Positions 222 through 64,000 of a stretch of DNA of 64,000 nucleotides are shown piece by piece. Both the position numbers and the translations under genes were made by a program. Source of the DNA: Pyropia yezoensis (lineage: Eukaryota > Rhodophyta > Bangiophyceae > Bangiales > Bangiaceae); assembly GCA_009829735.1 (NCBI GenBank), contig CM020618.1, forward strand, positions 11,685,119-11,749,118, given 5' to 3'. How positions within the stretch are numbered: the stretch's first letter is position 1; every line of letters begins with the position of its first letter. Below the pieces are notes generated by a model, which saw only the letters and a list, made by a program, of their open reading frames with translations, had not been told where the DNA came from and did no database searches.

Positions 222-2165
222 ATGGCGACTCCGGGAGTTGAGACGGACTCTCTTGACGAGCGCATGGAGGACACCTACTACGGTGCAGCACCCGCCGGGA
301 CTTCCGGCGGGGGCTCCGCGATCGCTCCGGGGGATGGGACTCCCGCGTCACCCGGCTTTGGGTTGACGGCGGGATCTCCCCCGGAGGCGGGACAAGTTGT
401 CCCGCGTGAGGCCTTGGGGCGGTGGTTTTACCCCGCTTGGCCTCTCTATGAGGAGGGGTTGACTGTTCTTCGCTGTGGCCGACTTGGCGCAGCGATGGGC
501 CGGGTATGGGACCGCCTACGGGAGAAGTATCCCCGTAGGGTCGGGTTCTCTGCCGGCTTCAGGACGGACCGGTTTGCCTTCCTGGACGATGAGGAGGTTG
601 AGGACGTTCAGCGGACCAAGGCCATGGTGGACCGCGGGGGAACTATCCCGGGTCCCGGCGACTTGCCGACCTTTACTTGGGACGCGGTGGCAACTCGCCC
701 CCCTTACCTTCACGAGGCCGATCCGCACACTCATCACTTTGGTGTGCGGATGGAGAAAGACTTCCGGCGAGGTCCCTACTTGGTGACCTCGGCTCAACTT
801 GAGTTTCCTCAACAGTCTGCTGCCAGTAAGGAGCAGTACTATCCGAAGAAGCCCGAGTGGTGGCCTCAAGTTGAGGTCCCCTACGGGTTCCCGGCGTTGC
901 TGCCACGGTTGCTTGACCACTTCGGCTCCGTCATGTTGACGGCTGGCCCTGATCACCTGGTGTGGGCCATGTTGGCCACCCAGTGGCTCCTCGAGGTCAT
1001 GTCGACCTGGGAGTTCTGTGTTCAGCGGTGGGGGATGCTCTGGCATCCCCCCCTCCGGCTCATCCACGGTTTGGAACAGCTCACCCCGCAGCTAGTTGCT
1101 GAGGGGTGCTCATCAGGACAACTCACTCTACTTGAGGAGATCCTCCGGCTCCATAAGTTTATCGAGTGGGAGAGCATTGAGCACAAGTTGCGCCGCCCCA
1201 CTCGTGGGCCCAAGGACGATGGCGCACTTCGCCAGTTCGTGTGGGTCGCTCGTGAACTTCACGACGGCCGTGTGGTCCTACGAGAGGGGTTGGGCATCGG
1301 GGACTACCCGTATGCCCCGGGGGTGGATCGCCACACTGCGCCACCAACGGACAAGCCCATAGTTATGGCTGTGCCCTCATATGATGACCATATGACTCAA
1401 CCTACTGCGGGGGCCCCAAGTCGGGGTGGCAGTTACACCCGGGTACCGCCACCTAAGCGTGCCCCTCCGCTTCCTCCTGTTCCTTTCCAGCCTCACGGGA
1501 ACATCCCGATCAGCGTGGCCGTGGAGTCATCCACCCCGGTGTCCCCCAACTTGGGGGCCACCCTCCTGACGGTATACCCCAAGTTGGTGTTACCGCCCAC
1601 GCCTCTAACCTCAGAGATGATGATCACCACGTTGGTGCGCACCATTTCCTGGTTGGCCGCGTCGACCGCAACCCTTCAAACTTCCGAGACTCCTCAACTT
1701 GAGGAGCGCGTTCGTACTGCAGTGGCGACCGCGAGGTGCGAGTCGGTGGCGGAGTTTATGACAGCCGAGTTGGCTCGCATTGGGGCTATTATGCCCCAGC
1801 CAGCCCCACTTGGGCGTGGCAAACGTCGCGCGAGCCGGGCATACTCGCCTCCTCGCCGTCGTCGCCGACACTCGCGGCGCTCTCCTTCAGTATCGGAAGA
1901 CGAGTTGTCTTACTCCGTTTCGGATTCCTCTACCCCGTCGGAGACGGAGTCTGTCCAGCGTCTGCGTCGCAAACTTGCGCGCAAGACCAGGCAGAAGAGT
2001 AGCCACGGTCGGCGCCACTTGCGCGACCGTGAAGGGCGCGACGGTTCCGACTTGGAGCTGCCGGCCCCGCCGACTGGTGGAGACCGTTATCGGCGTGGGT
2101 CTCGCCGCTCGCCTCCACGTGAGGGCGAGGGCCGTGGGGTTGGAGAGTCTAGCATGCGTGCCTAG
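222..2165 (+). CDS. Additional ORF of gypsy element A, antisense to gag-pol
   Basis: The open frame begins near base 51, but the first ATG is at 222 in GCCATGG context, giving 647 residues. No known function is recognised. The N-terminus (about residues 1-60) is Gly/Ser/Pro-rich. A central globular part includes YYPKKPEWW and EVPYGF (about 205-225) and LATQWLLEV (about 250). A Pro-rich linker follows, then a short helical block. The C-terminus is strongly Arg/Ser-rich (RRRRRHSRRS, RRKLARK, RRGSRRSP), resembling an RS domain with nuclear localisation signals. It stops 111 bp before the end of pol, which runs the other way, so transcripts from the two strands would converge. Elements E, C and D carry related ORFs in the same place and orientation, and B carries the C-terminal part. 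A nuclear, nucleic-acid-binding role is inference from the Arg/Ser tail only. It is uninterrupted here. Confidence 0.75.
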   Translation: MATPGVETDSLDERMEDTYYGAAPAGTSGGGSAIAPGDGTPASPGFGLTAGSPPEAGQVVPREALGRWFYPAWPLYEEGLTVLRCGRLGAAMGRVWDRLREKYPRRVGFSAGFRTDRFAFLDDEEVEDVQRTKAMVDRGGTIPGPGDLPTFTWDAVATRPPYLHEADPHTHHFGVRMEKDFRRGPYLVTSAQLEFPQQSAASKEQYYPKKPEWWPQVEVPYGFPALLPRLLDHFGSVMLTAGPDHLVWAMLATQWLLEVMSTWEFCVQRWGMLWHPPLRLIHGLEQLTPQLVAEGCSSGQLTLLEEILRLHKFIEWESIEHKLRRPTRGPKDDGALRQFVWVARELHDGRVVLREGLGIGDYPYAPGVDRHTAPPTDKPIVMAVPSYDDHMTQPTAGAPSRGGSYTRVPPPKRAPPLPPVPFQPHGNIPISVAVESSTPVSPNLGATLLTVYPKLVLPPTPLTSEMMITTLVRTISWLAASTATLQTSETPQLEERVRTAVATARCESVAEFMTAELARIGAIMPQPAPLGRGKRRASRAYSPPRRRRRHSRRSPSVSEDELSYSVSDSSTPSETESVQRLRRKLARKTRQKSSHGRRHLRDREGRDGSDLELPAPPTGGDRYRRGSRRSPPREGEGRGVGESSMRA

Positions 2166-2276
2166 TTGGCAGCTGCCTTTGTTGTGAGAGTGTGAGGGTT
2201 AGGGCTGTAGTTGAAAGCCACTCTGCGTACCACTTCGACTTGAAGCACTCTCTTGGCACTGTTGCTCGGCCTTCCC

Positions 2277-5200
2277 TCACGTTGAGGGAGGGCTGTTAGG
2301 GTCTATCTCATTCCGGGCACAGTACGCCCGGACCTTCTCAGCGGGAAGGTCCTCCACATACTCCCACGTATCGTCTTTGGCTTTGTAGCCAAACCAACGC
2401 ACCCTCAACATGAGGCGGTCAGTGTCTTCATCCCATCCGTGGTCGATGAAATTATCGAACACGTACTCCTGCGGGCCCTGTTTGGCCGCAGGCAGTGAGG
2501 GGAGGCGCCACGCTTCCAAAGCACGCGCCCAAGCTGGGTCGCCTGCAGGCGGTGGTGCAACTTTGACCACGTCCTGTCCGTTCACTGTGCGGACCCCATC
2601 GTCACTTTCGATGGTGAAGCGCCGCCCATCAGTACGAAGGACCTGGTACGGTCCCTTCGTCTGGAATACCAGCTTACCCCCAGTTGGGGTGTGCGAGTGT
2701 ACCAGCACCCAGTCACCCTGCTCGGGGACATGCTTAGCATTGCGCACCTTTTTGTCAAAGGTACGCTTGTAGCGCTTTTGTGCTTTGTCCATCTCAGCCC
2801 TGACTTTAGGGATGAGGTGCTCCAGCCTAGCAGCGAACTCCGCCTTACTCTCAGTAGGAGTAGGCGTACTGCCACTACCCTCCCCAGTTGGGAGCGACAG
2901 CCGCACAGCAATAGACCGCACACGACGGGGGGTCACAAAAGCGAGGGGTACTTCCCCTGTAGATGAGTGAACCTGCGAATTGTAGGCAGTAGTAAGGATA
3001 GAAATGTATTGGTCCCACGTCTTCACGTGCTCACTCACATAGTGGCGCAGCTGCCGAACAATAGTTTTGTTGAAGCGCTCCACCTGCCCATTAGTTTGTG
3101 GGTGGTAGGGGGTGGCATAGTTTGCCTTAACCCCCAACATATCCAGCACTCCCTGAAACAGTACAGACGCAAATTGCGGTCCATTGTCCGATAGTGTACT
3201 ATCCGGGATGCCATACGCGGCAACCCAGTGATCTAGAAAGGCTGACACGACCGACATGGCCGTGATCTTCGCCAGTGGGATCGCTCGCGTAAGTTTCGTG
3301 AAGCGGTCACAGGTGACCAGGAGGTACTGGTTGCCCTCCTCGGTCACCGGCAGTGGTCCAAGGATGTCCATCGCCAACGCGGCGAAGGGCTCCTTGGCCG
3401 GGAACAATAGCATAGCCGTAGTAGGGCGCCGTTCCATCAGACGGTTCTGTGCACAACTTGTGCAGGCAGCCACCCAACTGTAGATGTCCACCACCATGGA
3501 CGGCCAGTAGTACCTGGTCCTCAGGGTCTGGTAGAGTTTAATAGACCCCAGGTGTCCGCCCGTGGGAGCGTTGTGCTCCCTCTCAAGGATACTGTCCTTG
3601 AGGGATGCGGGGACGACAAGTTGGTTGGTCCCCTGGAATACCCCCATCCTCATGAGGAGGCCATCGTCTCCCAGAAAGAAGCGCGTCTCAACCACTGTAT
3701 CCAGTGTATCCCTCTGCGACTTGCAGAAGGGGTTCTCGGCCTGGGCCTGCACCACCTCGTCCAGGGACAGGGGCAAGTACTTCTTGTTCCCTGGCGCCTC
3801 GGGGTTCAACGCCTGACCCGAGCGCGTGACTACCCCCACGATGGGGATGTCCTCATCGACTGAATGATTGTCCAGCCCCTCGGTAGGTACCCGAGAGAGG
3901 CCGTCGGCAAGGGCATGTTGCCTGCCAGGTCGGTACTCAATGTCAAAGCTGAAGGGTGCCAGTCGCACCCTCCACCGGTTGAGACGAGTGTTCGTACAGT
4001 CCGTCTTGAAGATGAACTGCAACGCGCGGTGGTCACAGCGGATGAGGAACTTCTCACCCTCTAGGTAGTGACGAAGTGACGTCACCGCCCACACCACTGC
4101 GAGTCCTTCCAACTCGGTGACTCCGTAGTTCTTCTCGGCCGAGTTCAGCCCCTTACTGAAGTATCCCACCGGCAAGTACTCCTTGTCCGGCTGCTGCTGA
4201 AGCAACACACAACCAAGTTGGTCGTAGCTAGCGTCCACATCCAGGATGTAGTGGCCTCCCAACCTGGGAATAGCCAAGATGGGGGGCTTCAGCAGAAGGT
4301 CCCGAAGAGTCTCAAAGGATTCCTGCTCCACCCGACTTGGGGGAGGCAGGTTCTTCGGTAGCGTTGAGCTCACTAACTCATTCAACGGCTTCGCCACCTT
4401 GGCGAAGCCCTTCGTGAAACGTCGGTACACGTTACACATCCCGAGGAAGCTCCTCATCTGGGTCTGGGTCCGGGGGTACTGAGCCTTACGAATGGCCCTC
4501 AAGTTCTTCTCGTTAACACTGAGACGCCCCGGACGGACAACATGTCCCAAGTATTACACCTCTTGAGTGAAGAGGTGGCACTTACTCGCCTTCAGTGACA
4601 CACCGGCGTCAGCAAGTAGCTTGAACACCTGGCCAAGATGGCCAATGTGTTCCTCCGGACTTCGGGAGAACACAATAATATCGTCTAGGTACACAAGACA
4701 GATCTGCCACCGTACTCCGGCCAGAATCATGTCCATAGCGCGTTGGAAAGTTGCCGGCGCGTTACACAGACCAAACGGTAGACGCTTGCACTGGTAGGTA
4801 CCACAGTGACAGGTAAAGGTAGTTTTATGCCTGTCCTCCGGGGCAATGGGAATTTGCCAGTACCCCGCGTTACAGTCCAGGGTGGAGAACACGTTTGCCT
4901 CTCCCAGAGAGTCCAGACAGTCGTCCATCCTAGGTAGGGGATAACTGTCCTTCACCGTGCTCTCGTTGAGCTCACGGTAGTCGATACAAAACTGGGGGGG
5001 CCCATCAATTTTGGGGACGATAACCACCGGACTCGCCCACTCGGCGTTGCTGGCCTCGATCACATCGAGGGCCTCCATGCGAGCAACTTGCTCCTTAACG
5101 AGGGCCCTTGAACGAGGTCCTCCCCTATACGGTTGTTGGCGTATAGGGGGTGCACCGGGCTTCAACTCGATCCGGTGTTGGGTGGCTCTCATGAGTCCCA

Positions 5201-6260
5201 ATTGACCATCCCACAACTTGTGATATTGGTCCAAGAGGCGTTCAACTTGAACCCTCAACCTGGGGGGGACACCCTCCATGTTCACATGGGGCCGAGAAGA
5301 GGCGGCCGTCTTGGCTTGATGCTTCTCCTTTCCGGACTTCGGGTCGCTACTTGCGCCCGCGTTGAGGGTGACCGCTACTACCGGTCCCTCGTGTTGGTCG
5401 ATATAGCCGAACTTGGCTCCCGACTTGAGGTACTTGGGCGTCGGGCTCAGGTTCATCACCTGGACCCTCCACGGGACTCCGGCTTTGGAGTCCATCGTTC
5501 CAAGGGCAACATGCACTTGGTGCTTGCGAGCAAGACGGGGGTTAGGGTGCACCAACCCGTTCCCCGCATAATCAGTTACAACGTCCACGTGCGCCACCGA
5601 GTTGGGGGGCAACGTGACTTTGCGGGCTAAACGCAGGGTAGCAGTAAACCCTTCCCTCACAGAACAAACAGGCTTCGACTGTGAGACTGTCACAGGAGCC
5701 ACAGACTTTCCCTTACCAAGGATGGGGATAGTCTCCCCATTCATCAACTTGACCCAGTACTCGGGGCCACAAATCAAAGGCACTTGTGTTACGACATAAG
5801 AGGTACCCAGAAGCAGTGGTACCGATATATTCTCAACTACACCATAGGTCACGTCGACCTCATGGGTCCCCAACCTAGTTGGTAGGGTCACGGCACCAAC
5901 GATGGGAAGTACCCCACCATTGATGTCCATCATATGGTCAGCTTTGGACCTCCAGCGTTGGAGCTTCACCTCCTTTGGTAATAGCGACTTGCGTATCAAG
6001 GAGGCTCCTGACCCGGTATCAAGTACGATACGGGCACAACAGGCGCGGCCGGGGGCAAGTTGCACCCGTCCAGCCACCTGGAAGTTCTCACCCGTCAGCA
6101 CCGCGATGACCCGACGTGGGTTTACGTTCTTGGGGAGTCCTACCCGAGGTGGGCGGACTCCCTTAGGTCGCCGCAGTATCCGGCACGGTTGGTTCGTCCT
6201 CCTGGCCCACTTGGCCGAGGCTGCCGTTGTGAGCTTCGGACGGCCAGCTCCAACGGTCAT
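2277..6260 (-). pseudogene. pol: Ty3/gypsy element A pol (PR-RT-RNaseH-INT-chromodomain)
   Basis: This is a polyprotein of about 1,327 codons whose ATG overlaps the gag stop (ATGA). In order it shows aspartic protease LDTGSGASLI, reverse transcriptase FCIDYRELNE and YLDDIIVFS, RNase H residues in LDVDAS, LEGLAVVWA and CDHRAL, an integrase zinc-binding HHCC domain ending CTSCAQNR, and the DDE core (MDILGPL, LSDNGPQF, NGQVERFN). It ends with a GPY/F module (KGPYQVL) and a C-terminal chromodomain (RVRWFGYKAKDDTWEYVEDLP). The chromodomain and GPY/F order indicates a chromovirus-like Metaviridae element. A TAA at 4554-4556 splits RT just after FTQEV. Copy B has GAA there, so this is a G-to-T nonsense change. 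Otherwise the frame is open and the copy is young. Confidence 0.93.
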
Positions 6261-8202
6261 TCGTTTCCCGCCGACTTGGCGTCCGAATCTGAGGGCGGGG
6301 AGGAAGACGACGAGTCCGAGGACGACGTGTCCGCCTCCTCCGCCGAGGGTGTAGCGACCGCGACGACCGGTCGAGACCCACCCTCGCGGCGTGAACGTAC
6401 TTCGTTCGTAGCCGACCTCTTACTCGCATTCCTAACAAGTTGTTGGATGCGTTTACTCAACTTGGGGCAATCATATGCCCAGTGTCCATCGGAGTTGCAG
6501 TTCCAACACCGATGGTCTGTTCCGGGAGGGGTCTTCCCAACTGGGGAAGACAAAGAGATGCCCTGGGAAGTTCCCACGGCAGCTACCACCCTCTCCTTGC
6601 GGATTCGGCGTGCCTCTCTCAACTCTCTGGCCTGGCGCGCGTCCGCACGTTCCTTGGCCAACTCGGCCTGGCGCTCCTGGCGTTGTTCCTCTCGCAACTT
6701 GCGGTAGGCCTCACCTCTGCGATAGGCGAACCTGGCCAACTCGGCCAGGGTCGCCCGGGCAGTGTTATGCTCCCGGGTCTCCATCCGGACTGACCAATGG
6801 AGTCCCTCCACAAACCGACTCTTCACCACAGCTTGTGGATGAAGAAACCCACAAAGATTGTTGAGCTTACGGACTCGCTCCGCAAAGGACAACTCGTCCT
6901 CCGCCTCTTCCTGATGGGCTTGCGTAATCTCCTCGACTTGAGAAGCCAACGCTGCCTCATCAACCATGGCTCTCAACAACCAGTTGACGAGCTCCAAATA
7001 GGACGTCACCTCCCCAGCGCCTCCACTTGAGGAGCTGGGCATGACGGACATAAGTTCTGTCCGTAGGTCGCCCTTCGTAAACTCCTGTAGCATGTAAAAA
7101 GCCATGCCTTCACTTATGGCATTGTCGTCACAGGCTTTAGTGAAACGACGTAGGAACTCAAAGACACGGAGGGGGGGAGTTCCATCCCACTCCGCTTTGT
7201 GCCCAAAAGAATGAAGTGCATTCTTCTTGGCACGGCCCATGGCTCGGGCCTGGTCAGGACCATACGCCACCGACTTGTTGTGGAGGGCGCAGGTCTCACA
7301 GTCAAAGATCCGCTGGTAGACCGGGTTGGCTACCTGGATCTTGGGCGGCACCTCACGTTGAGGGAACAGCCGCTGTGGCACTGGGGTAAGTTCACCCTCA
7401 GTGCCTGTAGTCCGGCGCGGCGCGCTTGGTGTAGCCGCCGGCGTTTCCGGGGGGAACTCCCCCATGAAGGGCGTACGCCCCACCGAGTATGGTGTGGCTC
7501 CCTCGTTGGGAGTCACAGGTGTCGCCCCCAGTTCGGGGCGACCCGAGATAGGCGTGAGGAGGGATTCCCTCTGTGCCTGCGGGCTCGAAAGCCCCAATCC
7601 GGTCTGGACATTAAGGCCATCTGGCAAACTCGCCACAATCTGATTTAGAATAGTATTCGTCATCGTGACCACCAGGTCCGGCAAAGTCTGCCGCAACACA
7701 TTGGTCGCCTCCCGACGGACAGTTTCCGCGAGGAGTGGATTGACGACTCCAGTTGAGTCTCGGTCCGCCTCCGGGAGTCCACCTGAGGGGTAGCCACGTT
7801 CCTCAGGGGTCTCAACCGGGGGCATGGGCGCGAGCCCATCGCCGACCAACGGAGGTCCGCCGTCCTCCGAAAGCCTAGTTGGCGACGGCTCCAAGCCAAA
7901 GTTGGCTCCAACCCGAGTGGAACCCGCAGGGACAGTCCTCACCCCTTGGGACGTTCCCGTTGAGTATACCACACGGTGGCCAGACTTCGGCCCACCCACA
8001 TCAGAAGTGTCACCCGAGTGAACTCCCGACTGAGTCGGGGTGGCCTGTTGCCCGCCCGCACTTCCAGTCCTGCAGGCTTGAGGGACCTCTAGTCCCTCTG
8101 CGACCCCAGGTAAACCCACCTGTGTCTCACCAGTATTCAAAGGCACTGAAGTACGTGCGTCACCCGTGTACACCCGGACGACGGGGGGTCCGAGCTAGCC
8201 AT
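6257..8202 (-). pseudogene. gag: Ty3/gypsy element A gag with early frameshift
   Basis: This is a capsid/nucleocapsid precursor of about 648 codons. It has a Pro/Thr/Gly-rich N-terminal half, then a helical capsid part containing FEFLRRFTKAC, SEGMAFYML and VEGLHWSVRM. A charged coiled-coil-like stretch rich in Arg, Glu and Gln follows, then a CCHC zinc knuckle (CWNCNSDGHWAYDC) and an acidic Ser-rich tail. The start is taken as ATG at 8200-8202, matching copy B. Near 8165-8172 this copy lacks one base present in B, shifting the first roughly ten codons out of frame. Translation would need another start downstream. The stop overlaps the pol ATG by four bases, suggesting reinitiation or frameshifting for Pol expression. 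Confidence 0.9.
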
Positions 8203-8301
8203 GTTGGCTGACGATCCGTGTGACACGGTCCAAGTCCACCGTTCCTCTGAGACAGAGGGCCCCCTACACCCGGGTGCACCCGGAGGTAAAGTTTACCTCT
8301 G

Positions 8302-8319
8302 TCCCCTGCTGCTCCACCA
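8302..8319 (-). other. Primer-binding site of element A
   Basis: On the minus strand, two bases after the LTR end, lies TGGTGGAGCAGCAGGGGA, starting with the TGG expected opposite a tRNA 3' CCA. Copy B has the same site with one base changed (CAGCT for CAGCA). The priming tRNA is not identified. Confidence 0.6.
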
Positions 8320-8321
8320 AA

Positions 8322-8790
8322 TGTGGCAAAAACCACATGCACACACGGCACCCAAGTTGGGGCGGTGTGCAAGGGCTGCCTCCCGTGTCGGGGGAACCGG
8401 AAGAAGTGCAAGTCGCACACACTCTGTCCCTGTTGTGGGGCAAACCCCCCACGGACAAACAAGAGGATGGTGTGTGGTCCAACAGTTTCTTGGTCGGGAC
8501 GGGGACGCAGGGCCAAGCCCCGCTGTCCCTCCCCTTATCCCCCCAGGGTCCACTCAGAATCTCGCCACTCAGAATCTCCCACCCCAGCACCTGCCCACCG
8601 GGCCACACGAAAATTCAAGACGATAAATGCAGAAAACCTTCAAATCCAAGTTGGATTTACTACTAAGCTAACTATCCCAAACTTAGGGAATATGGACCCA
8701 AAAGCAGGGGGAGGAACGGATCAGGCTAGTGGCCTGCCGCCCCTTGCATGGCACGTGTTGCCCCCCTACCTGGGGGTCAATACTGCCACA
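8322..8790 (-). repeat. 5' LTR of gypsy element A
   Basis: This 469-bp LTR starts TGTGGCA and ends TGCCACA on the minus strand, a perfect 7-bp terminal inverted repeat. It is nearly identical to the 470-bp LTR of element B at 57130-57599. The flank at 8791 starts AGGCG and lies inside the Fanzor-like reading frame. The partner 3' LTR is beyond base 1, so the target duplication cannot be checked. Read on the plus strand, the outer end contains an ATG (8748) followed by an open frame that crosses the LTR edge. Confidence 0.85.
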
Positions 8791-11700
8791 AGGCGCTCTC
8801 CTACGCCCTGACGCAGGTGATGGCCGTCACGGCAGCTGCGTGCGACCGGTATCTTCCGGCGAGCAACAACACGGCACGATGGGAGCCCGTAGCCACCATC
8901 GTGGCCACTCACGCCGGGCGCTGTGTGGACGCGGCGTGTCGCAAGCTGGCGCCAAGGCGGCCAAGGACGCGCTGGCCACCTCCCCCGCTGCCACGGCTGC
9001 TCCAGCGGGCGGCTCTGCCTGGGAAACGGAGCGGCGGCTGACGCAGTGGGCGGCCGCGCGCTTCCGGACGGTTACCGCGGACAAGACAACGCCGGGCCGG
9101 CGGGGCCTCGACGGCGTCCCCCAGCACCTGGTCCAGACGCTGGCCCAACGGGTGGCCGTCATGCGGGCGGCCATGCCACCCTCTGTGGCGGGCCTCTTTG
9201 CAGCAACGCCTGTGAAGAAGCGCCGCTGGTGGGCGTACGTGCCGTATCTCCTCCACGTCCTGAATGTGGGTGTGGAGAGCCCGGACGCCCTCATCCCTGG
9301 CGCCCGAGCGGTGCTCCACGGTCACGGCACGCTGGTGCCGGACAAGATGCTCGCCCTGTTGCGGGCAGTTTCGGTCGCTACTGGCGTGGGGGTGCGTGGC
9401 CACCCCAGTCTTCGGGCATGGCCAGAGCTGCGAATGGGCGGTGCAGCGGTGCTGGCCGCCATGGCTGGTGTCGGTGGCCGCGCAAACCGGGCCGCCTCCC
9501 AGCTGTCTACCGACGGCGTGGCGGTGACGTTTTTTCTGTCTCGACCCGACACGGCCGCAGAGGCCGAGGCGCGGGCGGTGGCCTGGGCCAAGAAGCTGAA
9601 CGGCGGTGGACGTGCACGGGACCGCAGCGGCAAAGGCTTTGCGTCCCGAGTGGGGGTACTGACGCAGCTCGAGCGGGCTGGCCTGCCGTTGGCGCGCGTC
9701 CGGTGGCTCCAGATGGTCGGCGGAGACCCGGGACGGTCTGCCGAACTGTCGGCAGCACCGAATGAGCGCGTGGCGACGGCAGACCTCCCCGCCCGCCCCG
9801 CTGAAGACGCGATGCGCGCCTCGTGGTCCCGCCACATGGACTTGGACGCACTCAACCGGGCGGCCGTGGCGCTCCTGCGTAGGGGGGGCGTCCAAGACGG
9901 AGGGGCGGCAGCCGCAACCGTGCCCGAGGGCCACCCACCCAGGGGGTCTCGGAAGCGGGCGGCGGCGGGCGCCCCGGCTGCAGGGGCGGGGACAGGGGGG
10001 GGCCGCTCCAAGCGACAAGCGCGGCGGTTGTCACCCGAGGGGAGCGTCGATGATGCGGCGGCGGTGGCTCCGGCGGCGGCGGGTGCGACGACACCCCCCG
10101 AGGCAAAGACCTACCAGACGGCGAGCCCCGGCGGTGGCCACGGGCGCGTGCGGCGTGGGCCGCAGGCGTCCATCCGACGGGCCCGCCGCACCCAGCTCGC
10201 CACTTCAGTGCGGCGTGTGCTGCGTCGCACGCGCCTGTCCCGGTGGACTGTGCCCCGTCACGAGGCGGAAAAGGTGGCACCGTGGCTGGTGGACCCCACT
10301 GCCGCGGCGGGCAACAGTGACAGCAGCACCATCCCAGACGCGCTGCTGCAGGACCGGTTGGACGCGCTGCCCCGGCGCAAGGGGTGTCGTCGACTGGCAC
10401 CCGCCCCCGGCCTTCGCTACAGCCTGAGTGCCGCCCACTTTCGCGAGGCCAGCGGCGGTAACTTTTTGGCCCGTGCGTGAAAGCAGTGGCGGGCATGCAG
10501 CGATACTGAAGCTGGACAGGTGGCGGCGGCGGTGGCGGGACTGGTAGCGGCGGCGGGTGACGTAGGCGGCGTCGCTGGCCACCTACCGCCCGTCGACTTG
10601 GCAGCAGCACACGACACAATGCGTACCGGCGACGACGGGAAACACCTGCAAGCAACGCTCGAGTTGGCCGCCCGTCGCGACACGGCCGCGTACGGCGAGC
10701 GATTTAGCGCGCAAGCCACGCGACACCTGCGGGCGGCGCTTGTGCGCATGGCCATCCAACTCGGCCACTTTGCTGCCTCGGTTGCGCGGGACCTGACCAG
10801 CGGCCTCCTTCGCCAGGTCCGCGGCGGCGGCGCGGTCGTCGTGGCCATGGGCACCGCGCGCGTGCGCGGGGGGGATGCCTGGCTCCGCCGCCACCTCCGA
10901 CGGCTGTGCTGGTTTGTCGACCTGGACGAGTTCAACACGAGCCAGGCGTGCTCTGAGTGTCACGACAAGATGGTGCTCATCTACTCGACGGCCAACTCCC
11001 CCCCCAAGATTCCAAGAGAGCTGTATGGGCCGCCGGCCGGCCCTCTGCCGTCGACACGGCGTGTGCGGATGGTGGCCGGTTCGCGTCGGGGGCGGCCAAA
11101 GCGGGCCCTCCCCTCTGCGACCCACGTGACGGGCCGAGGACCGGACCCCGACGCCTACCGGGCGGCCGTCCGAGCCACTGCCCGTGCTGAAGCTGTGGCG
11201 CGGCGCGCGGCCGCGCTGGCCCCCTGTGCCGTCGAGGACCGCGCCGTCCATGCCGACCCGAGGAGGCTGAGCGAGTGGGCGGCCAAGGGCTGCTACAAGT
11301 GCTCTCTCGCGGCCCCACAAGGCCCCGGTCACCCAGCGCCACACCCGCCCGCGATTCGCAATCGCGACGACGTTGCGGCCCGCAACATGGCGTGGGTGGC
11401 CGCTCGTCGTCTAACGGGTACCATCGTGTGGCCTTTCAAGCGCCCGTTTGGTATGAGGTGGGCCTGGACGACCAAGCGTCCTCCAAGTGGTGTTCCCGTC
11501 CCGCCTGTACGTCGCACCCGTGCGACTACGCGGGTCGATGTGTGGCCCGTACTGGCTGCAGTGGACACTGTCGTCGACGGTGGTGGCGGTGGCGGTGGCG
11601 GCGGTGGCGGCGGCGGCGGTGGCGGTGGCGGTGGCTGCGGCGGTGGCGGCGGCGGTGGCGGTAGGGGGGTTGTCGACGGCGACGCGACGGCGGCGTCCTG

Positions 11701-11977
11701 TACGACGCGACGCGGTGCTCCGGGTGGGGAACGGGTGGTGGCGGCCGGCAGTGCCATGGACGGGGTACGTCGGGCGGAGACGGGGGCGACAGACGCGCCC
11801 CGTGGTCTGGTGGACACTGCAAAACGCAAAGACAGCGCACATCTTGCCCGTGACCCTCACCTACCACGGGGTGCGTCACCCGCCCCCTTTTTCGCCGACG
11901 AGCCAATTATGGGTAATTGTCGGCCGTTCACTAGCAGGTTAGACGCCGGCTTTTCCCGGGGACCTTTCCCAGGATGA
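8791..11977 (+). pseudogene. Fanzor-like (eukaryotic TnpB homologue) RNA-guided nuclease, disrupted
   Basis: This encodes a homologue of Fanzor, the eukaryotic relatives of IS200/605 TnpB and Cas12 that cut DNA guided by an omega-RNA. Visible blocks are a helical N-terminal piece (ALTQVMAVTAA, RCVDAACRKL), STDGVAVTF (Asp codon 9512), a probable RuvC-I Asp in LVDP (10292), YSLSAAHFREASG (about 10420-10458), VVVAMGTA (about 10840) and VDLDEFNTSQACSECH (Glu codon 10928). A second CX2C pair, CYKC, is at 11291, followed by NRDDVAARNM with the RuvC-III Asp at 11366. The DEFNTS glutamate and the Cys4 finger are hallmarks of Fanzor and related TnpBs. The gene-like part probably ends near 11460, after VWPFKRPFG; the frame then runs into GGT/GGC repeats. 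Defects are element A inserted in the 5' part, a one-base frame change near 8950, and TGA at 10478-10480 in an otherwise continuous frame. An Ala/Gly/Arg-rich insert of about 200 residues separates the TDG and RuvC-I blocks. It may be an inactive copy or, less likely, contain introns. Confidence 0.85.
11575..11664 (+). repeat. GGT/GGC trinucleotide tract
   Basis: An imperfect array of GGT and GGC triplets gives a poly-glycine run in the reading frame that continues from the Fanzor-like gene. It lies beyond the last conserved Fanzor motif and probably belongs to the 3' flank. Confidence 0.85.
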
Positions 11978-12894
11978 GTCGGATGTTTCCCGGAGGGGTC
12001 GATAGTTGAGCGTAGTGTCACGATGTCATTTTTTTGGACAAGACCAACTCTGAAACCATCTTCATGGAACGCACTGTATCGGATACGGTCGCATCCAACT
12101 CGTTGGGCACCCTGGCCTGACACGGGCTTCGTTGTCCAATGGCGCCTGCTCCCCCCCGCACGGCGCGCTGGAGGCTCAGGTGCCATGCTCATACGAGAAT
12201 CCACGCTCAGCCGGCAAACAGCATCTGACCTGTCAACGTGGGGACCTGGAGACGTGCAGTCGACCGATCTTAAAAAAAAAAACTTTATGTAGGGCGTCCC
12301 CACCAACGTGACTATCCGACGATGGATGGAACGTCAGTTATACACGATGACGCCGCTCTCTCCACCGCCTCCTACATGGCGTGCAGCAAACACTCAATTG
12401 TTTTAATAATCTAAGATAGCACGGGAAGCTCTAATCAACATTCAAAAGCGTCCCTAATCAAAGCGGAAATCTCGTATGTGCACGGCACCCGAGACATGGT
12501 GGACGCCGACGCCTAAACCGCCGTGTCAAGAGGTTGACGCAGTCATGTGGTTTCTCACAGCTGTGTGGCTGCCCAGCAGGGCAGCCAAGGGAGTGTTCGG
12601 CGGGGCGACTGACCCGCGGCGGCGAGAAAACAAAGCAAACTCATGACGCTGCCGCCACCCAATGTCAATGCGGACCACCACCCCGCACACCCCACCTGCA
12701 CCAGGGCGCTGTGGCGAGCGGCTGCGAGTGGGCCCATGGGCAGCCGCCGCCGGGCGACCACCGTCGCGGCCTCTGGAATCGGCAGCGCTGGACGGCCGGG
12801 AGGAGGGAAGGCCTGCAGGCCGCGCAGGCGCCGCGGGGTCCCCCGCACCGTCTTGCCGTCCCCCCCAGCCCCTATTCCTTTCTTTTCCGTCACC
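11978..12894. other. Region downstream of the Fanzor-like gene, no clear gene
   Basis: I see no convincing coding signal. The stretch contains an A10 run at 12271-12280. The 3' flank of Fanzor genes is where the omega-RNA normally lies, so 11460-12300 is the place to look for it. I could not recognise a defined structure by eye. Confidence 0.4.
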
Positions 12895-15082
12895 TCACCC
12901 CGTCTCGTACATGTTGACGACTGTGTCCCACGCCCCGCCCCCGCCCGCGCCACGCCGGGCGTGCGCAACGGCCAGCAACCGCGTCGCCGCGTCGGTCGCC
13001 GCCACCACCGCCGCCACGCCGCGCACGGTTAGGGTGCCACAGAGGCCGTCGACGGCGACGGAGGCGCCGCCAACGTCGCCTCTGCCAGTGCCGCCGCCGC
13101 CGCCACCGCCGCCACCTCCGCCGCCGCCGCCGGCATCGCCACCACCGCCACCCGCGCTGGTGGGGTCAAACAACGCCACCTCCTCTCGGGCACCAATGTA
13201 GACGGCGGCAAGGCCTGCCCCCCCCCCCGATGCGACGCACCGAAGGCGGGGGGGGGGGGGGAGCGCCGTGCCGTGGGGGGTGGTGGTCGTCGTGGAATGC
13301 GTCGACGAGCCGTGTACAGCGGCGGCGGCGGCGGCGGCGGCGGAGGGGGTGCCCCAAAGGGCGTTTCCTCTCTCCGTGCTACCCACGGCGGGCGTCCGCC
13401 GCCCAGCCCCCCCCCCCCACACCACAGGGGCAATGGCCTCCCAGCCGGCACGGCCGGCGAGAACGACCGCCTCCCCCGCCCCCCTTCCCCCGTCTCCCCG
13501 CCCCACCCCCCCAGCGGGCACCACCGCCAGCAGCGCCGCTGCCCCACGGCGCACCCGCTCCACCCCCGCCGGGCACACGACGCAGAGGCCCGCGGCGGCA
13601 GCCGGCGGCGAGCCGGGCCGGCGGGCGGCGGCCACCCACTCAAGCCCCCCCGGGTGGAGCGCCCGCACCGCGGCGGCCGTCTCCACCCACAGTAGCACGT
13701 CGGGAGGGGAGGAGGGGGGGGGAAGCGGAGGGGCACCACCCCCACGCGGTGGCGGCGGCGGCGGCGTCGGGGGGGGGGGGGGGGCCCCCCCCCCCCCCAC
13801 CCGCCACTACTGAGGCGCCGCCGCCGTGACGGCAACGGCGGTGGCGGCGCATCCGCCCCCCCCCCTCGAGGTGTGACCACTGTGGGGAAAGGACCGGCGG
13901 CCCCCCCCACCCCACCTCCAGCGACCGCATGGATGTGCACGGCGTCGCCGCCGCCGCCGCCGCCGCTGCCGCCGTCGTGGTCGCCGCCCCCCCCCCGAGG
14001 CGGTGGGGGCCGCCCCCCCCCCCCAGGGGCAGCTCTACTCGCCGCCGCACCCGCCGGTAGCCCGCCTCGCATAGGATGGCGGTGAGGGTAGGCGCGCCGC
14101 CCGCCGTGGCAGGGCCGGTGACAAAGAGGATGTCCGCCGCGGGAGGGGGCGGCGTCTCGGCCGCGGCCGCCGCGGCCGCCGCGGCCTCGGCGCCGCCGCC
14201 GCCGCCGCCGCGGCCGTTGCCGCCGACAGCGGCAGGGGCGGGCGTCGGTGGTGGGGGCGCCGGTGGCGGTGGTGGAGGTGGGGGGGGGGGCAGCCGCCAC
14301 CGCCGGCCGGGTGGCCCCGCCCCGCGGGGGACGAGCGCCAGGCGGCGGCCGCCGCCCGGCACGGCCGCCGCTACAGCCGCGTCGGCCGCCGCCGCGGCCG
14401 AGGCGGCAGCGTCGTCGACCGCGGACGCGGCGGCGCCTCCCCCGTCCGCAACCCGCGGCCGCGGCCGCCCCGCGGTGGTGGCGCGCAGGGCCGGCGGCGG
14501 CGGTAACGGCGGCGGCGGCGGCGAGCCGCCGCCTTCGGGAGCCTCCCCCACCCGCAGGCGGAGGAGCAGCCGTAGCGACGCAACGTCGTACAGCAGCACT
14601 GCCACCGCCCGCCGGTCGTCCCCCCCAGCCCCCGCCGCTGTCGCCGGCGCCACCGCCGCCGGCGCAGCTGCGGGCGGGGCGTCAGCCTCGGCCGCACCGC
14701 TCCACTCAACCCGCACGGCCAGCACCCCCCCACCCGCCGACAGGTCCACGTCAGTCACCGTCACCCCACGGGGGGCGGCGAGGGTGGCAACCGCCCGCGG
14801 GCGGAGGACGCCCACCCCGCCTCCTCCTGCCACACGGGCGCCATCGCCGCCACCGCCGCCGCCGCCACCGCCACCGCCACCTCCGCCGCCGCCGCCGCCG
14901 CCGCCGCCGGCCGCGGCGCCCAGCCGGTGGAGCCGCCACACCATCACCCCCCCGGCGGTGGCGACGGCCAGCACCCCCCGCGCCGCGGCAGCCGAGACGG
15001 GAAACCCCGCCGCGGGGGCCACCAAAGTCGCCGCCACACCCCCCCCCCCCCGCGCCGCCGCCTGCCGCCGCCGCCAGTGCCG

Positions 15083-15165
<83 letters not shown>

Positions 15166-15395
15166 AGGGAGAGGGGAGCCGCCGTCGCCACCGCCGCCGC
15201 CGCCATTGGCCGAGCTGGTGTGGGCGGCCAGCTGCGCCGCCGCGGCGGCCAGGCGGAGGCGCGCCTCGCGCTGCCGCCGGCGCAGGGAGTCCGCGTCGGC
15301 GCGGGGGGCCGCCACGGCGGAGGGGGTGGGGGTGGCGCCTGTCGGGGGGGGGGGAGGGGGTGGGGAGGGTCGCCCGCCGCTGACCGTCGGGGCAT
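12895..15395 (-). CDS. Gly/Ala/Pro-rich hypothetical protein, frame broken at homopolymers
   Basis: Two long minus-strand frames abut: one covers about 13640-15418, the other ends at 12895 with VVNMYETG. They are in different phases, and the switch falls in the G/C homopolymer runs around 13745-13800, so a sequencing error, intron or true frameshift could explain it. Between low-complexity inserts are short beta-strand-like blocks (GVLAVATAGGVMVWRL, AVAVLLYDVASLRLLL, LAAVYIGAREEVALFD). Their spacing and Trp/Asp endings are reminiscent of a WD40-type propeller, but this is weak. A likely ATG is at 15393-15395 in ACCATGC context. A CCAAT box on this strand lies near 15578. The family is not recognised, and GC richness makes frame choice uncertain. 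Confidence 0.45.
15084..15163 (+). repeat. (GCC)n microsatellite, about 26 units
   Basis: A near-perfect GCC tract of about 80 bp. Depending on strand and frame it encodes poly-Ala, poly-Gly, poly-Pro or poly-Arg. It lies within the N-terminal part of the hypothetical minus-strand gene. Confidence 0.95.
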
Positions 15396-15690
15396 GGTGC
15401 CGCGACCGGCAGCCGCACGACTCTGTCCGGCGGCGGGGGGGGGGGTGTAGCGCGACCGTGGGCTGCGGGGGTGACCGGGAGCTAAGACTGCGAACGCACT
15501 CCCCGACATCAAAGGCTGCAGAGGAGGGGTTCTTTTCAGGCGAAAAAAGAAAAAGAGTCGCGTCTCAAAAGACTTTCATTGGGAGGCGGCCTACGTGCAA
15601 CGTCGTCCCTCTTGGACGTCGTGAGCAGTCTTCTCACCCCCGCGGGCCCACCAAGCCTCCCCGGTTCCCCTTTTCCCCCACCCCGTCCCA

Positions 15691-57129: not shown

Positions 57130-57599
57130 TGTGGCAGTATTGACCCCCAGGTAGGGGGGCAACACGTGCCATGCAAGGGGCGGCAGGCCACTAGCCCGAT
57201 CCGTTCCTCCCCCTGCATTTGGGTCCATATTCCCTAAGTTTGGGATAGTTAGCTTAGTGGTAAATCCGACTTGGATTTGAGGGTTTTCTGCATTTATCGT
57301 CTTGAATTTTCGTGTGGCCCGGTGGGCAGGTGCTGGGGTGGGAGATTCTGAGTGGCGAGATTCTGAGTGGACCCTGGGGGGATAAGGGGAGGGACAGCGG
57401 GGCTTGGCCCTGCTTCCCCGTCCCGACCAAGAAACTGTTGGACCACACACCATCCTCTTGTTTGTCAGTGGGGGGTTTGCCCCACAACAGGGACAGAGTG
57501 TGTGCGACTTGCACTTCTTCCGGTTCCCCTGACACGGGAGGTAGCCCTTGTACACCGCCCCAACTTGGGTGTCGTGTGTGCAAGTGGTTTTTTGCCACA
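57130..57599 (+). repeat. 5' LTR of gypsy element B
   Basis: A 470-bp LTR with perfect TGTGGCA...TGCCACA ends, nearly identical to the LTR of element A in opposite orientation. It interrupts element E gag. The left flank is CAGTC; the matching duplication would lie beyond 64000. Confidence 0.87.
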
Positions 57600-57601
57600 T
57601 T

Positions 57602-57619
57602 TGGTGGAGCAGCTGGGGA
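57602..57619 (+). other. Primer-binding site of element B
   Basis: TGGTGGAGCAGCTGGGGA starts two bases after the LTR and opens with TGG, complementary to a tRNA CCA end. The tRNA was not identified. Confidence 0.6.
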
Positions 57620-57718
57620 CAGAGGTAAACTTTACCTCCGGGTGCACCCGGGTGTAGGGGGCCCTCTGTCTCAGAGGAACGGTGGACTTGGACCGTGTCA
57701 TACGGATCGTTAGCCAAC

Positions 57719-59665
57719 ATGGCTAGCTCGGACCCCCCGTCGTCCGGGGAGTACACGGGTGACGCACGTACTTCAGTGCCTTTGAATACTGGTGAGACAC
57801 AGGTGGGTTTACCTGGGGTCGCAGAGGGACTAGAGGTCACTCAAGCCAGCAGGACTGGAAGTGCGGGCGGGCAACAGGCCACCCCGACTCAGTCGGGAGT
57901 TCACTCGGGTGACACTTCTGATGTGGGTGGGCCGAAGTCTGGCCACCGTGTGGTATACTCAACGGGAACGTCCCAAGGGGTGAGGACTGTCCCCGCGGGT
58001 TCGACTCGGGTTGGAGCCAACTTTGGCATGGAGCCGTCGCCAACTAGGCTTTCGGAGGACGGCGGACCTCCGTTGGTCGGCGATGGGCTCGCGCCCATGC
58101 CCCCGGTTGAGACCCCTGAGGAACGTGGTTACCCCTCAGGTGGACTCCCGGAGGCGGACTGAGACTCAACTGGAGTCTTCAATTCACTCCTCGCGGAAAC
58201 TGTCCGTCGGGAGGCGACCAATGTGTTGCGGCAGACTTTGCCGGACCTGGTGGTCACGATGACGAATACTATTCTGAATCAGATTGTGGCGAGTTTGCCA
58301 GATGGCCTTAATGTCCAGACCGGATCGGGGCTTTCGAGCCCGCAGGCGCCGGGGGAATCCCTCCTCACGCCTACCTCTGGTCGCCCCGAACAGGGGGCGA
58401 CACCTGTGACTCCCAACGAGGGAGCCACACCATACTCGGTGGGGCGTACGCCCTTCATGGGGGAGTTCCCCCCGGAAACGCCGGCGGCTACACCAAGCGC
58501 GCCGCGCCGGACTACAGGCACTGAGGGTGAACTTACCCCAGTGCCACAGCGGCTGTTCCCTCATCGTGAGGTGCCGCCCAAGATCCAGGTAGCCAACCCG
58601 GTCTACCAGAGGATCTTTGACTGTGAGACCTACGCCCTCCACAACAAGTCGGTGGCGTATGGTCCTGACCAGGCCCGAGCCATGGGCCGTGCCAAGAAGA
58701 ATGCACTTCATTCTTTTGGGCACAAAGCGGAGTGGGACGGAACTCCCCCCCTCCGTGTCTTTGAGTTCCTACGTCGTTTCACAAAAGCCTGTGACGACAA
58801 TGCCATAAGTGAAGGCATGGCTTTTTACATGCTACAGGAGTTTACGAAGGGCGACCTGCGGACAGAACTTATGTCCGTCATGCCCAGCTCCTCAAGTGGA
58901 GGCGCTGGGGAGGTGACGTCCTATTTGGAGCTCGTCAACTGGTTGTTGAGAGCCATGGTTGATGAAGCGGCGCTGGCTTCTCAAGTCGAGGAGTTTACGC
59001 AAGCCCATCAGGAAGAGGCGGAGGACGAGTTGTCCTTTGCGGAGCGAGTCCGTAAGCTCAACAATATTTGTGGGTTTCTTCATCCACAAGCTGTAGTGAA
59101 GAGTCGGTTTGTGGAGGGACTCCATTGGTCAGTCCGGATGGAGACCCGGGAGCATAACACTGCCCGGGCGACCCTGGCCGAGTTGGCCAGGTTCGCTTAC
59201 CGCAGAGGTGAGGCCTATCGCAAGTTGCGGGAGGAACAACGCCAGGAGCGTCGGGCCGAGTTGGCCAAGGAACGGGAGGAGGCGCGCCGAGCCAGAGAGT
59301 TAAGAGAGGCACGCCGAATCCGCAAGGAGAGGGTGGTAGCTGCCGTGGGAACTGCCCAGGGTACCTCTTCGTCTTCCCCAGTCGGGAAGACCCCTCCCGG
59401 AACAGACAATCGGTGTTGGAACTGCAATTCCGATGGACACTGGGCATATGATTGCCCCAAGTTGAGTAAACGCATCCAACAACTTGTTAGGAATGCGAGT
59501 AAGAAGTCGGCTACGAACGAAGTACGTTCACGCCGCGAGGGTGGGTCTCGACCGGTCGTCGCGGTCGCTACACCCTCGGCGGAGGAGGCGGACACGTCGT
59601 CCTCGGACTCGTCGTCTTCCTCCCCGCCCTCAGATTCGGACGCCAAGTCGGTGGGAAACGAATGA
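57719..59665 (+). pseudogene. gag: Ty3/gypsy element B gag with one premature stop
   Basis: ATG at 57719 opens MASSDPPSSGEYTGDA, and the frame runs 648 codons, colinear with element A gag, through the capsid blocks and the CCHC knuckle CWNCNSDGHWAYDC. TGA at 58160-58162 interrupts it after PEAD, where copy A has CGA, proving a C-to-T change. Unlike A it keeps the correct frame at the start. The gag stop overlaps the pol ATG by four bases. Confidence 0.92.
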
Positions 59666-63646: not shown

Positions 63647-63757
63647 GGGAAGGACGAGCAACAGTGCCAAGAGAGGGCTTCAAGTCGAAGTGGTACGCAG
63701 AGTGGCTTTTAACTACAGCCCTAACCCTCACACTCTCACAACAAAGGCAGCTGCCAA

Positions 63758-64000
63758 CTAGGAACGCATGCTAGACTCTCCAACCCCACGGCCCTCGCCC
63801 TCACGTGGAGGCGAGCGGCGAGACCCACGGCGATAACGCTCCCCACCAGTCGGCGGGGCCGGCGGCTCCAAGTCGGACCCGTCGCGCCCCTCACGGTCGC
63901 GCAAGTGGCGACGACCGCGGCTGCTCGTCTGCTTAGTCTTGCGCGCAAGTTGGCGACGCAGACGCCGGACCGACTCCGACTCTGACGGAGTCGAAGACTC
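63758..64000 (-). CDS. Additional antisense ORF of gypsy element B, C-terminal part
   Basis: Minus-strand frame ending at TAG 63758-63760, cut by the window edge at 64000. Its 80 residues match the Arg/Ser-rich C-terminus of the element A ORF (RRGSRRSPPREGEG, VGESSMR). Over 81 codons there are 22 codon differences and no indel, 12 of them synonymous by my count. The gap to the pol stop is about 110 bp, as in A. Confidence 0.75.
   Translation of the reverse strand, partial: ESSTPSESESVRRLRRQLARKTKQTSSRGRRHLRDREGRDGSDLEPPAPPTGGERYRRGSRRSPPREGEGRGVGESSMRS

What the first reader, a model, noticed from the sequence alone, without database searches (positions are those of the whole stretch)
8791..11977. 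Fanzor-like RNA-guided nuclease gene in a retrotransposon-rich algal-type locus
The frame has the ordered Fanzor/TnpB signature: STDGVAVTF, a VDP Asp, SAAHFREASG, DEFNTSQACSEC, CYKC and NRDDVAARN. All three candidate catalytic acids are retained although the gene is broken by element A, a one-base shift near 8950 and TGA at 10478. A continuous phase of more than 2.9 kb with one stop argues for very recent inactivation, so an intact relative probably exists elsewhere in the genome.
Basis: partly seen in the sequence, partly recalled or inferred. Interest (0 to 1): 0.9.

Follow-up and report, generated by a model that had tools for sequence, protein, structure and literature searches.

The report
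Broken giant Fanzor gene in nori
This is a damaged copy of a large mobile DNA element in an edible red seaweed that carries an unusually big Fanzor-type (probably RNA-guided) DNA-cutting gene ending in a conserved folded RNA-like tail; apparently intact copies lie elsewhere in the genome, which makes the system testable.

Summary
Window 8791-12007 (+) is the 3' part of one copy of a high-copy mobile element encoding a Fanzor/TnpB-type protein. It is broken by an LTR retroelement (right LTR 8322-8790), a one-base frame shift near 8950 and TGA at 10478. Assembly sizes match Pyropia yezoensis. The genome gives 116 matching rows; 59 span the query, 18 of them with uninterrupted frames of at least 1,300 aa. 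The seven read in full encode ~1,400 aa.

Pfam Cas12f1-like_TNB reaches E=2e-5 in the third family, below its cut-off; a trimmed profile's only PDB match is TnpB-like L79 (E=0.48).

New: in families 1 and 2 the element's last ~120 nt carry a conserved two-stem RNA-like structure with some compensatory changes, abutting variable flanks, as in a Fanzor guide-RNA scaffold. A UPF1-like helicase gene lies upstream of 43 of 59 copies.

Best reading: a giant Fanzor OMEGA system. New variant of a known kind.

The parts
8791..12007 (+). 3' part of a broken copy of the Fanzor-bearing element
   Evidence: blastn to four intact copies (L031, L032, L033, L036), 94.3-95.1%; 3' end shared with copies that have other flanks
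8790..8948 (+). frame piece matching residues 397-449 of the ~1,400-aa relative, before the frame shift
   Evidence: tblastn frame 3, 96%
8897..10477 (+). second frame piece, up to the in-frame TGA at 10478-10480
   Evidence: tblastn frame 2; the ORF listing
9506..9532 (+). STDGVAVTF motif (position of a Fanzor WED-type motif; label recalled)
   Evidence: aligned with LRSNGEGVVFTL in family 2
9719..9739 (+). GGDPGRS: RuvC-I catalytic Asp (9725-9727) in the DPG signature
   Evidence: DPG kept in families 1-3
10427..10456 (+). SAAHFREASG motif
   Evidence: aligned with SRGRYTEAAG in family 2
10481..11827 (+). C-terminal RuvC/zinc-ribbon part of the protein
   Evidence: tblastn; PF07282 E=0.011, under its cut-off
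10925..10960 (+). DEFNTSQACSEC: rearranged RuvC Glu, six residues before the first CxxC
   Evidence: position as in the Fanzor pattern of PMC10711439
11291..11302 (+). CYKC, second CxxC of the zinc ribbon
11360..11386 (+). NRDDVAARN, RuvC-III Asp
11889..12007 (+). right-end structured RNA candidate (guide-RNA scaffold); its terminal stem is damaged in this copy by a short deletion
   Evidence: covariance model of the first 48 nt 71.1 bits, E=2.7e-18 (the window sequence is in the model)
11894..11924 (+). conserved hairpin H1 of the right-end RNA candidate
   Evidence: 11 pairs, 98.1% of cells paired, one pair in three types GC/CG/UA
12008..12027 (+). 3' flank, where the guide would lie in the OMEGA model (inferred)
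   Evidence: flank shared with the duplicates L038/L039; 24 other copies have 24 different flanks
1935..8790 (-). LTR retroelement A that cuts the gene; same family in inverse orientation at 57130-63988
   Evidence: 96.8% self match; Gag-like CCHC frame 6257-8194 (-), label by eye
8322..8790 (.). right LTR (469 bp) of element A; the same insertion is a solo LTR in L039, with AGGCG on both sides

Best explanation
The window holds a decayed copy of a large mobile element of Pyropia yezoensis. The intact element encodes, at its 3' end, a ~1,400-aa Fanzor-type nuclease (RuvC with DPG Asp, rearranged Glu and NRD Asp, plus a C4 zinc ribbon). It ends in a two-stem RNA scaffold that runs to the element's last nucleotide. 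Most likely the right-end transcript carries the adjoining host flank as guide, and the protein cuts DNA matching that flank, such as the empty site on a sister or homologous chromosome, so that the element is retained or copied by repair. Shown here: the gene family, copy number, conserved acids, conserved right-end structure and upstream helicase gene. Inferred: transcription as a guide RNA, binding, cleavage, and the benefit to the element.
For: 116 matching rows, 59 spanning the query, 45 of 59 without a stop there, 18 of 59 with such frames of >=1,300 aa; 7 of those 18 read in full, all 7 with ORFs of 1,393-1,414 aa. dN/dS 0.33-0.93 over 21 pairs. Families chain by homology: F1-F2 about 40-44%, F2-F3 31-32%; F3 matches PF07282 at E=2e-5 and all 7 members of A4 match it at E<=1. 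Sole PDB match of A4 at E<=10: TnpB-like L79 (mimivirus, recalled), collinear at the NEY...C block and the RDENAAKN block, E=0.48. DPG-to-Glu distance 400-408 in 12 relatives from three families, 401 in the window. Right end: z -3.26 (F1 L012), -4.39 (F2 L040), -4.52 (subfamily 2p L054) with the same H1 and a terminal stem 2; controls: coding +0.54, flanks +1.28 and -1.61; L031 -3.80, coding -0.78. Compensatory changes. H1 pattern: 82 genome sites, 0 for the reversed pattern; 58 of 82 lie within 2 kb downstream of one of 106 Fanzor places on the same strand, 0.08 expected.
Against: No match passes Pfam's curated cut-off (best 25.1 against 26.3 bits). The window protein has no PDB match; F3 alone has only an unrelated one (1agq, E=0.39); hhalign to E. 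coli InsQ gives probability 1.3-1.4%. Published Fanzor spacings are not met. The window copy and F2b L058 do not fold into the same shape (z -1.99 and -0.04); a 100-nt part of L031 pairs otherwise (z -2.37); in 165-nt windows of seven family-2 copies the exact H1 forms in two (L040, L054) and the terminal branched stem in six (by eye). H1 was not found in F3, whose right end was hardly fetched. Only one H1 pair has changes on both sides, and related rows inflate such counts. No small-RNA data, no fold model, no transposase.
Confidence: 0.76

Rival explanations
1. The protein is a Fanzor relative, but the right-end structure is only a transposon end: a terminal hairpin read as single-stranded DNA or as TIR-like DNA by a transposase acting in trans, as in IS200/IS605 or Helitron2 elements. 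It is not a guide-RNA scaffold.
For: The stem reaches the element end, and 24 copies have 24 different flanks. More rows were listed for the 3' gene than upstream (116 Fanzor, 78 helicase, 40 five-prime-tag rows; the lists are capped, so this is weak), which recalls the 3' overabundance described for Helitron2-type Fanzor elements of Chlamydomonas (PMC3627910 section 8).
Against: The H1-linker-stem-2 layout resembles the two-stem, 6-nt-linker scaffold reported for SpuFz1 (PMC10432273 passages). H1 is internal, not at the terminus, and is kept in families 1 and 2 with both subfamilies. No HUH, Rep or other transposase was recognised among the frames scanned. [quoted passage not shown]
Confidence: 0.25
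2. The gene is a domesticated or decaying passenger: a Fanzor-derived DNA-binding protein that has lost cleavage, kept only because it rides in the element.
For: Large insertions between the catalytic motifs, stops in 14 of 59 copies, dN/dS up to 0.93, no family hit over its cut-off.
Against: The three candidate acids align in families 30-45% identical; 12 of 13 sequences have DPG, Glu-x6-CxxC and RD (L056 has NCD in place of NRD). Eighteen long open frames remain.
Confidence: 0.12
3. Not a Fanzor: a zinc-ribbon protein of an unrelated transposon family whose motifs resemble TnpB by chance.
For: Weak profile scores; no fold model; no significant PDB match.
Against: The ordered motif set is absent from 143 window frames and 10,000 shuffles; the only PDB match of A4 is a TnpB-like protein; PF07282 is the only family matched by more than one of the 7 members of A4.
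Confidence: 0.05

Closest known systems
Fanzor1 elements of eukaryotes (SPu-1/SpuFz1; PMC3627910 and PMC10432273, passages seen)
   Same: Multi-copy element, DPG/E/C4/RD order, right-end structured RNA with variable sequence beyond it; RNA-only sites like 'ghost' loci (24 of 82 H1 sites here without a Fanzor place within 2 kb upstream)
   Different: ~1,400 aa instead of 638 aa (SpuFz1) or up to ~800 aa; elements of about 12-17 kb or 24-29 kb between 5' tag and 3' end instead of ~2.1 kb; no 30-nt terminal inverted repeat seen in two copies with both ends; extra helicase gene
[quoted passage not shown]
   Same: Red alga, ~150 copies, unclassified transposon, no TIR
   Different: Around 3 kb, copies ~80% identical to the consensus; no helicase gene, right-end RNA or giant protein mentioned in that section
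Giant algal DNA transposons with accessory N4/N6 DNA methyltransferase genes (Ectocarpus; PMC12477816 passages)
   Same: More than 10 kb, nested insertions, accessory methyltransferase (one copy here)
   Different: Those are KDZ, EnSpm and Sola elements; the word Fanzor does not occur in the paper's main text; none of these transposases was recognised here
Bacterial TnpB of IS200/IS605 and IS607
   Same: RuvC plus zinc ribbon at a transposon right end; flank as guide (PMC10711439 passages)
   Different: TnpB is 350-550 aa in the set of PMC10711439; no TnpA recognised here; too distant for hhalign with InsQ

Membership tests
Fanzor | Ordered D ... [TS][TS]xx-C4 zinc finger ... RD | tested here: met
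   Order met in 12 of 13 sequences incl. the window; L056 misses because NRD reads NCD
Fanzor | Published spacing D-X(125,275)-[TS][TS] (PMC3627910) | tested here: not met
Fanzor | DPG at RuvC-I and Glu six residues before the first CxxC (PMC10711439) | tested here: met
   13 of 13
Fanzor | Strict published regex DPGx(120-160)Ex6CxxCx(12-18)CxxCx(4-8)D | tested here: not met
   0 of 13; DPG-E ~400 residues, first CxxC to second Cys pair 96-112 residues, and CX4C instead of CX2C in families 2 and 3
Fanzor | OrfB_Zn_ribbon / PF07282 match | tested here: inconclusive
   E=0.011 window; 2e-5 best relative, 25.1 bits under the 26.3 cut-off; own-genome search with the family: 0 at E<=0.001
Fanzor | RuvC/WED/REC fold | not testable with these tools
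   structure prediction switched off
Fanzor | Lies in the Fanzor clade in a tree | not tested
   no Fanzor1 sequences were at hand
Fanzor | Carried by a transposable element | tested here: met
   59 query-spanning copies; shared 3' end with different flanks
OMEGA (right-end guide RNA) | Conserved structured RNA at the transposon right end, followed by variable sequence | tested here: met
   from DNA only, in families 1 and 2; not in the window copy's own fold, L058 or (little sequence seen) family 3
OMEGA (right-end guide RNA) | RNA expressed, bound by the protein, guiding cleavage | not testable with these tools
   needs small-RNA-seq and biochemistry
IS200/IS605 or IS607 TnpB element | TnpA (Y1 or serine recombinase) alongside | tested here: inconclusive
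   none in the element frames given to Pfam; not every stretch of the element was scanned
Helitron2 | Rep/Hel protein and typical termini | tested here: inconclusive
   helicase best matches AAA_12/AAA_11; no Rep match in the 1,088 aa before it; both termini known in two copies only, no TSD seen by eye
Giant viral element | Relatives in virus contigs | tested here: not met
   A2 in viral contigs: 27 stretches matched a pattern, none confirmed (that collection only)

The most novel reading that the evidence does not exclude
A giant element whose only recognised DNA-handling genes are a 1,400-aa Fanzor, its right-end RNA and a UPF1-like SF1 helicase (with a methyltransferase and a Ulp1-type protease nearby in larger copies). 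RNA-guided cutting plus helicase unwinding, rather than a conventional transposase, may drive its spread by break repair.
Probability: 0.2. Interest if true: 0.88.

Novelty: new variant of a known kind. Interest (0 to 1): 0.62.

Why it matters
Fanzors are eukaryotic relatives of Cas12, and PMC10432273 states that their biological roles remain unknown (passage). Here are many nearly intact copies next to different flanks, in a farmed seaweed. Families 1 and 2 share a predicted right-end RNA. This makes it possible to test whether a native Fanzor uses its flank as guide, and why the protein has grown to more than twice the size of SpuFz1. It also widens the known range of RuvC and zinc-ribbon insertions and links a Fanzor with a helicase gene.

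Tried and rejected
Searches of the window protein and of alignments A2 and A3 against the PDB: nothing significant; A3 ranked an unrelated enzyme first (E=0.17) and L79 second (E=3.3); family-3 L066 alone gave only 1agq (E=0.39); only the trimmed C-terminal alignment A4 gave L79 alone. NCBIfam: no family for 9 members. Viral contigs: none confirmed. Rfam on 8700-12300: none at E<=1. hhalign of A2 and A3 with InsQ: not significant. PF07282 search of the own genome: 0 matches at E<=0.001.

The VDP Asp was rejected as catalytic because paralogues lack it. Taking the 5' tag (L048 ~1697, L049 ~237) as the true 5' end was not settled: it was not found in E1 nor listed near the copy at C2:19.58 Mb, and C48 genes lie upstream of it in others. 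No TSD was seen in the two copies with both ends. A Tc3-like HTH frame between helicase and Fanzor (E=0.0016, under cut-off) was looked at and left. The methyltransferase's copy number is unknown because the search did not complete. Two weak covariance-model hits inside the LTR elements (17.5 bits, E=0.014) were taken as chance.

Rows dropped: the gene-pairing counts use the 59 query-spanning of 116 Fanzor rows, 52 of 78 helicase rows, 27 of 40 tag rows and 16 of 34 C48 rows (the stronger ones). The H1 pairing uses 106 Fanzor places merged by hand from the rows. The conservation count uses 24 of the 30 loci: L001-L003 (the duplicate set) and L017, L022, L026 (end or motif not found) were left out. 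Of 35 extracted right ends, 14 or 15 rows went into alignments A5 and A6 (near-identical ones left out; the window row taken instead of L001); the extraction missed L017, L022, L026, L053 and L057. In one search the percentage paired, the cells with double changes and the covariation score beat all 500 shuffles, but the number of pairs with changes on both sides (1) and of further types (5) is reached by 499 and 356 of 500; the same two counts are reached by 224 and 129 of 500. The structures were derived from members of these alignments.
Full report
Where it lies. The window is G000:C1:11685119-11749118 of a 107.5-Mb genome. The three large contigs measure 43.59, 34.33 and 29.39 Mb. They match the three scaffolds reported for Pyropia yezoensis (43.6, 34.3, 29.4 Mb; PMC7423979, passages seen); the window's G+C of 56-72% fits that genome's 65%. 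The host name is an inference from these sizes, but a strong one.

The observation. All motifs are there at the coordinates in the parts list. A full-length relative matches window 8790-8948 in one frame and 8897-11827 in the next; TGA lies at 10478. Homology to other copies starts at 8791, the base after a 469-bp LTR (8322-8790), and ends at 12007 (blastn itself stops at 11999 because of a short deletion). The LTR belongs to a retroelement at about 1935-8790; a relative lies inverted at 57130-63988 (96.8%). In L039, 12.8 kb upstream, the same insertion is a solo LTR with AGGCG on both sides. L038, L039 and the window share the LTR site, the frame shift, the stop and the 3' flank, so they are segmental duplicates of one broken copy, perhaps by recombination between LTRs (inference).

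Intact relatives. Searching the own genome with window 10481-11460 gives 116 rows; 59 span the query. Of these, 45 of 59 have no stop in the stretch and 18 of 59 have, without a stop there, a frame of at least 1,300 aa. Seven of the 18 were read in full (L031-L037): all encode 1,393-1,414 aa and are 95-96% identical to the first. dN/dS over the 21 pairs is 0.33-0.93, which fits past purifying selection followed by neutral decay (inference).

Identity of the protein. Direct evidence is thin. The window piece matches Pfam PF07282 (Cas12f1-like TNB) at E=0.011. The paralogues say more: family 2 (L040, L051-L053, L055; subfamily 2p L054, L056; subfamily 2b L057, L058; about 40-44% to family 1) and family 3 (L065, L066; 31-32% to family 2). 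Family-3 L066 reads VGVDPGVND, TQDEYNSSQTCADCH and CVNPDCGRLYLNRDRNAARD. It matches PF07282 at 2.2e-4 whole and 2e-5 trimmed, 25.1 bits against a cut-off of 26.3; all 7 members of A4 match that family at E<=1, and no other family is matched by more than one. The A4 profile has one match at E<=10 among 177,635 PDB sequences, TnpB-like protein L79 (mimivirus, recalled), E=0.48, aligned at the Glu-zinc block and the RD block in order. That is not significant alone, but specific. Against it: the untrimmed A3 profile ranks an unrelated enzyme above L79, and L066 alone finds only an unrelated chain.

Catalytic residues. DPG is present in 13 of 13 sequences tested, with Glu six residues before the first CxxC in 13 of 13; the whole relaxed pattern is met in 12 of 13 (L056 has NCD for NRD). 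The DPG-Glu distance is 400-408 in the 12 relatives and 401 in the window. These are the two hallmarks used for Fanzors in PMC10711439 (passages and section 10). The strict published spacings are not met (0 of 13): here DPG-Glu is ~400 instead of 120-160 residues, and the two cysteine pairs are 96-112 residues apart instead of 12-18.

The element. Copies share sequence far upstream. A UPF1-like SF1 helicase gene (label recalled; PF13087 121.9 bits, PF13086 85.0 bits; frames of 1,752 and 1,779 aa in two of three copies read, split by a stop in the third) lies on the same strand. Of the 59 spanning Fanzor copies, 43 have it within 40 kb upstream and 31 at 6.5-8.5 kb. Pairing the 5' tag with the 3' end gives lengths of about 12-17 kb and about 24-29 kb; the longer ones were not read from end to end and may hold nested insertions. 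In the longest copy read (E1) an N6/N4 DNA methyltransferase gene (PF01555 34.8 bits) and a divergent Ulp1-type C48 peptidase gene (PF02902 58.1 bits) lie further upstream. C48 matches lie within 90 kb upstream in 12 of 59 copies, 10 of them on the opposite strand. Whether these two genes belong to the element or to a neighbour is open; the methyltransferase could not be counted. Ten more distant helicase relatives (42-44%) also exist in the genome. No transposase was recognised.

The right end. Copies end in CCGATAGTT or nearly so, with unrelated flanks: 24 of 24 loci examined differ; the first flank base is A in 18, C in 3, G in 3 and never T. The last 124 nt differ by 1.6% per pair, against 2.4% in the coding stretch and 2.9% in the tail between. 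Single sequences of family 1 (L012), family 2 (L040) and subfamily 2p (L054) fold to the same plan: a 5-nt leader, an 11-bp hairpin H1, a 5-nt linker, then a branched stem 2 that closes one nucleotide before the element end (z -3.26, -4.39, -4.52). Controls: a family-1 coding stretch +0.54, flanks +1.28 and -1.61. L031's last 150 nt give -3.80, a coding stretch -0.78.

Against this plan: subfamily-2b L058 gives -0.04 with another shape; the window, with a short deletion in stem 2, gives -1.99 with another shape (folded to 12008, one flank base too far) and -1.74 in a longer piece; 100 nt of L031 pair differently (-2.37). In 165-nt windows of seven family-2 copies, the exact H1 forms in two and the branched terminal stem in six (by eye). 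H1 was not seen in family 3, of which little right-end sequence was fetched.

Covariation. On 14 distinct rows H1 is paired in 98.1% of cells (0 of 500 shuffles reach it), and its outer pair is GC in family 1, CG in F2/F2b and UA in F2p: one pair with double changes, in 7 rows. In stem 2 of F2/F2p (6 rows), 3 of 32 pairs show double changes and 94.2% of cells pair (1 of 500 shuffles reaches it). The counts of such pairs alone are not beyond the shuffles, the rows are related, and the structures came from members of the alignments, so this is supportive, not proof. An H1 pattern made from these copies hits the genome 82 times, and 0 times read backwards. Of 82 sites, 58 lie within 2 kb downstream of a Fanzor place on the same strand (0.08 expected at random); 44 of 59 spanning copies have it; 24 sites stand without one.

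How it probably works. SpuFz1's guide RNA has a 75-nt scaffold of two stems and a 6-nt linker from the element's right end, followed by a 14-15-nt guide from beyond it, and RNA-only 'ghost' loci exist (PMC10432273, passages). The same plan here suggests that the right-end transcript is the scaffold, the host flank the guide, and the protein the nuclease. By analogy with TnpB it would cut the empty site and favour retention or copying of the element. All steps after the sequence features are inferred.

Known or new. Fanzor elements are known in red algae: CMe-1A of Cyanidioschyzon, about 150 copies and 3 kb (PMC3627910 section 12). A Fanzor element is the most abundant repeat of the green alga Auxenochlorella (PMC12633428, passage), and giant algal transposons carry methyltransferase genes (PMC12477816, passages). 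In searches I saw no paper on Fanzors in Pyropia or Porphyra, on a helicase-linked giant Fanzor, or on a red-algal Fanzor RNA. These are top listings of an open-licence library; most listed papers were not opened (among them PMC12451028 and PMC10820777, which hold both 'Fanzor' and 'red alga'), and subscription papers are mostly missing. I rate it a new variant of a known kind: Fanzor by order and hallmark residues, outside its published spacing limits.

Noticed in passing
window 1935-8790 and 57130-63988: Two copies of one LTR retroelement in opposite orientation, 96.8% identical over 6.9 kb; LTR 469 bp, TG...CA.
   Followed up: partly
L063:6506-7498 (-): Ulp1-type C48 peptidase gene divergent from the helicase gene; 13 near-full rows in the genome, 10 of them upstream of a Fanzor copy on the opposite strand, with variable spacing.
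   Followed up: partly
L063:2-5515 (+), continuing upstream in L064: Very large frame with an N6/N4 DNA methyltransferase domain, possibly of the accessory kind reported in algal giant transposons; copy number not obtained.
   Followed up: partly
L047:1675-4686, L048, L049: Block of tandem repeats (roughly 370 bp by blastn offsets) upstream of the helicase gene, apparently different in number between copies.
   Followed up: no
24 genome sites, e.g. C1:5096196, C1:13268261, C3:21469530: H1 hairpins without a listed Fanzor place within 2 kb: either remnants or RNA-only 'ghost' elements.
   Followed up: no
3' flanks of 24 copies: The base after the element end is A in 18 of 24 and never T: a possible target preference.
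   Followed up: no
L041:2199-2813 (+): Frame with a weak Tc3-type transposase HTH match (E=0.0016, below the cut-off) between helicase and Fanzor genes.
   Followed up: partly
window 13029-15481: Low-complexity, G+C-rich stretch with long overlapping frames on both strands; probably compositional.
   Followed up: no
C1:10759813, C1:8767374, C3:25435543 and others: Ten further helicase relatives at 42-44% identity, six of them in frames of 1,786-1,940 aa: perhaps a second element family.
   Followed up: no
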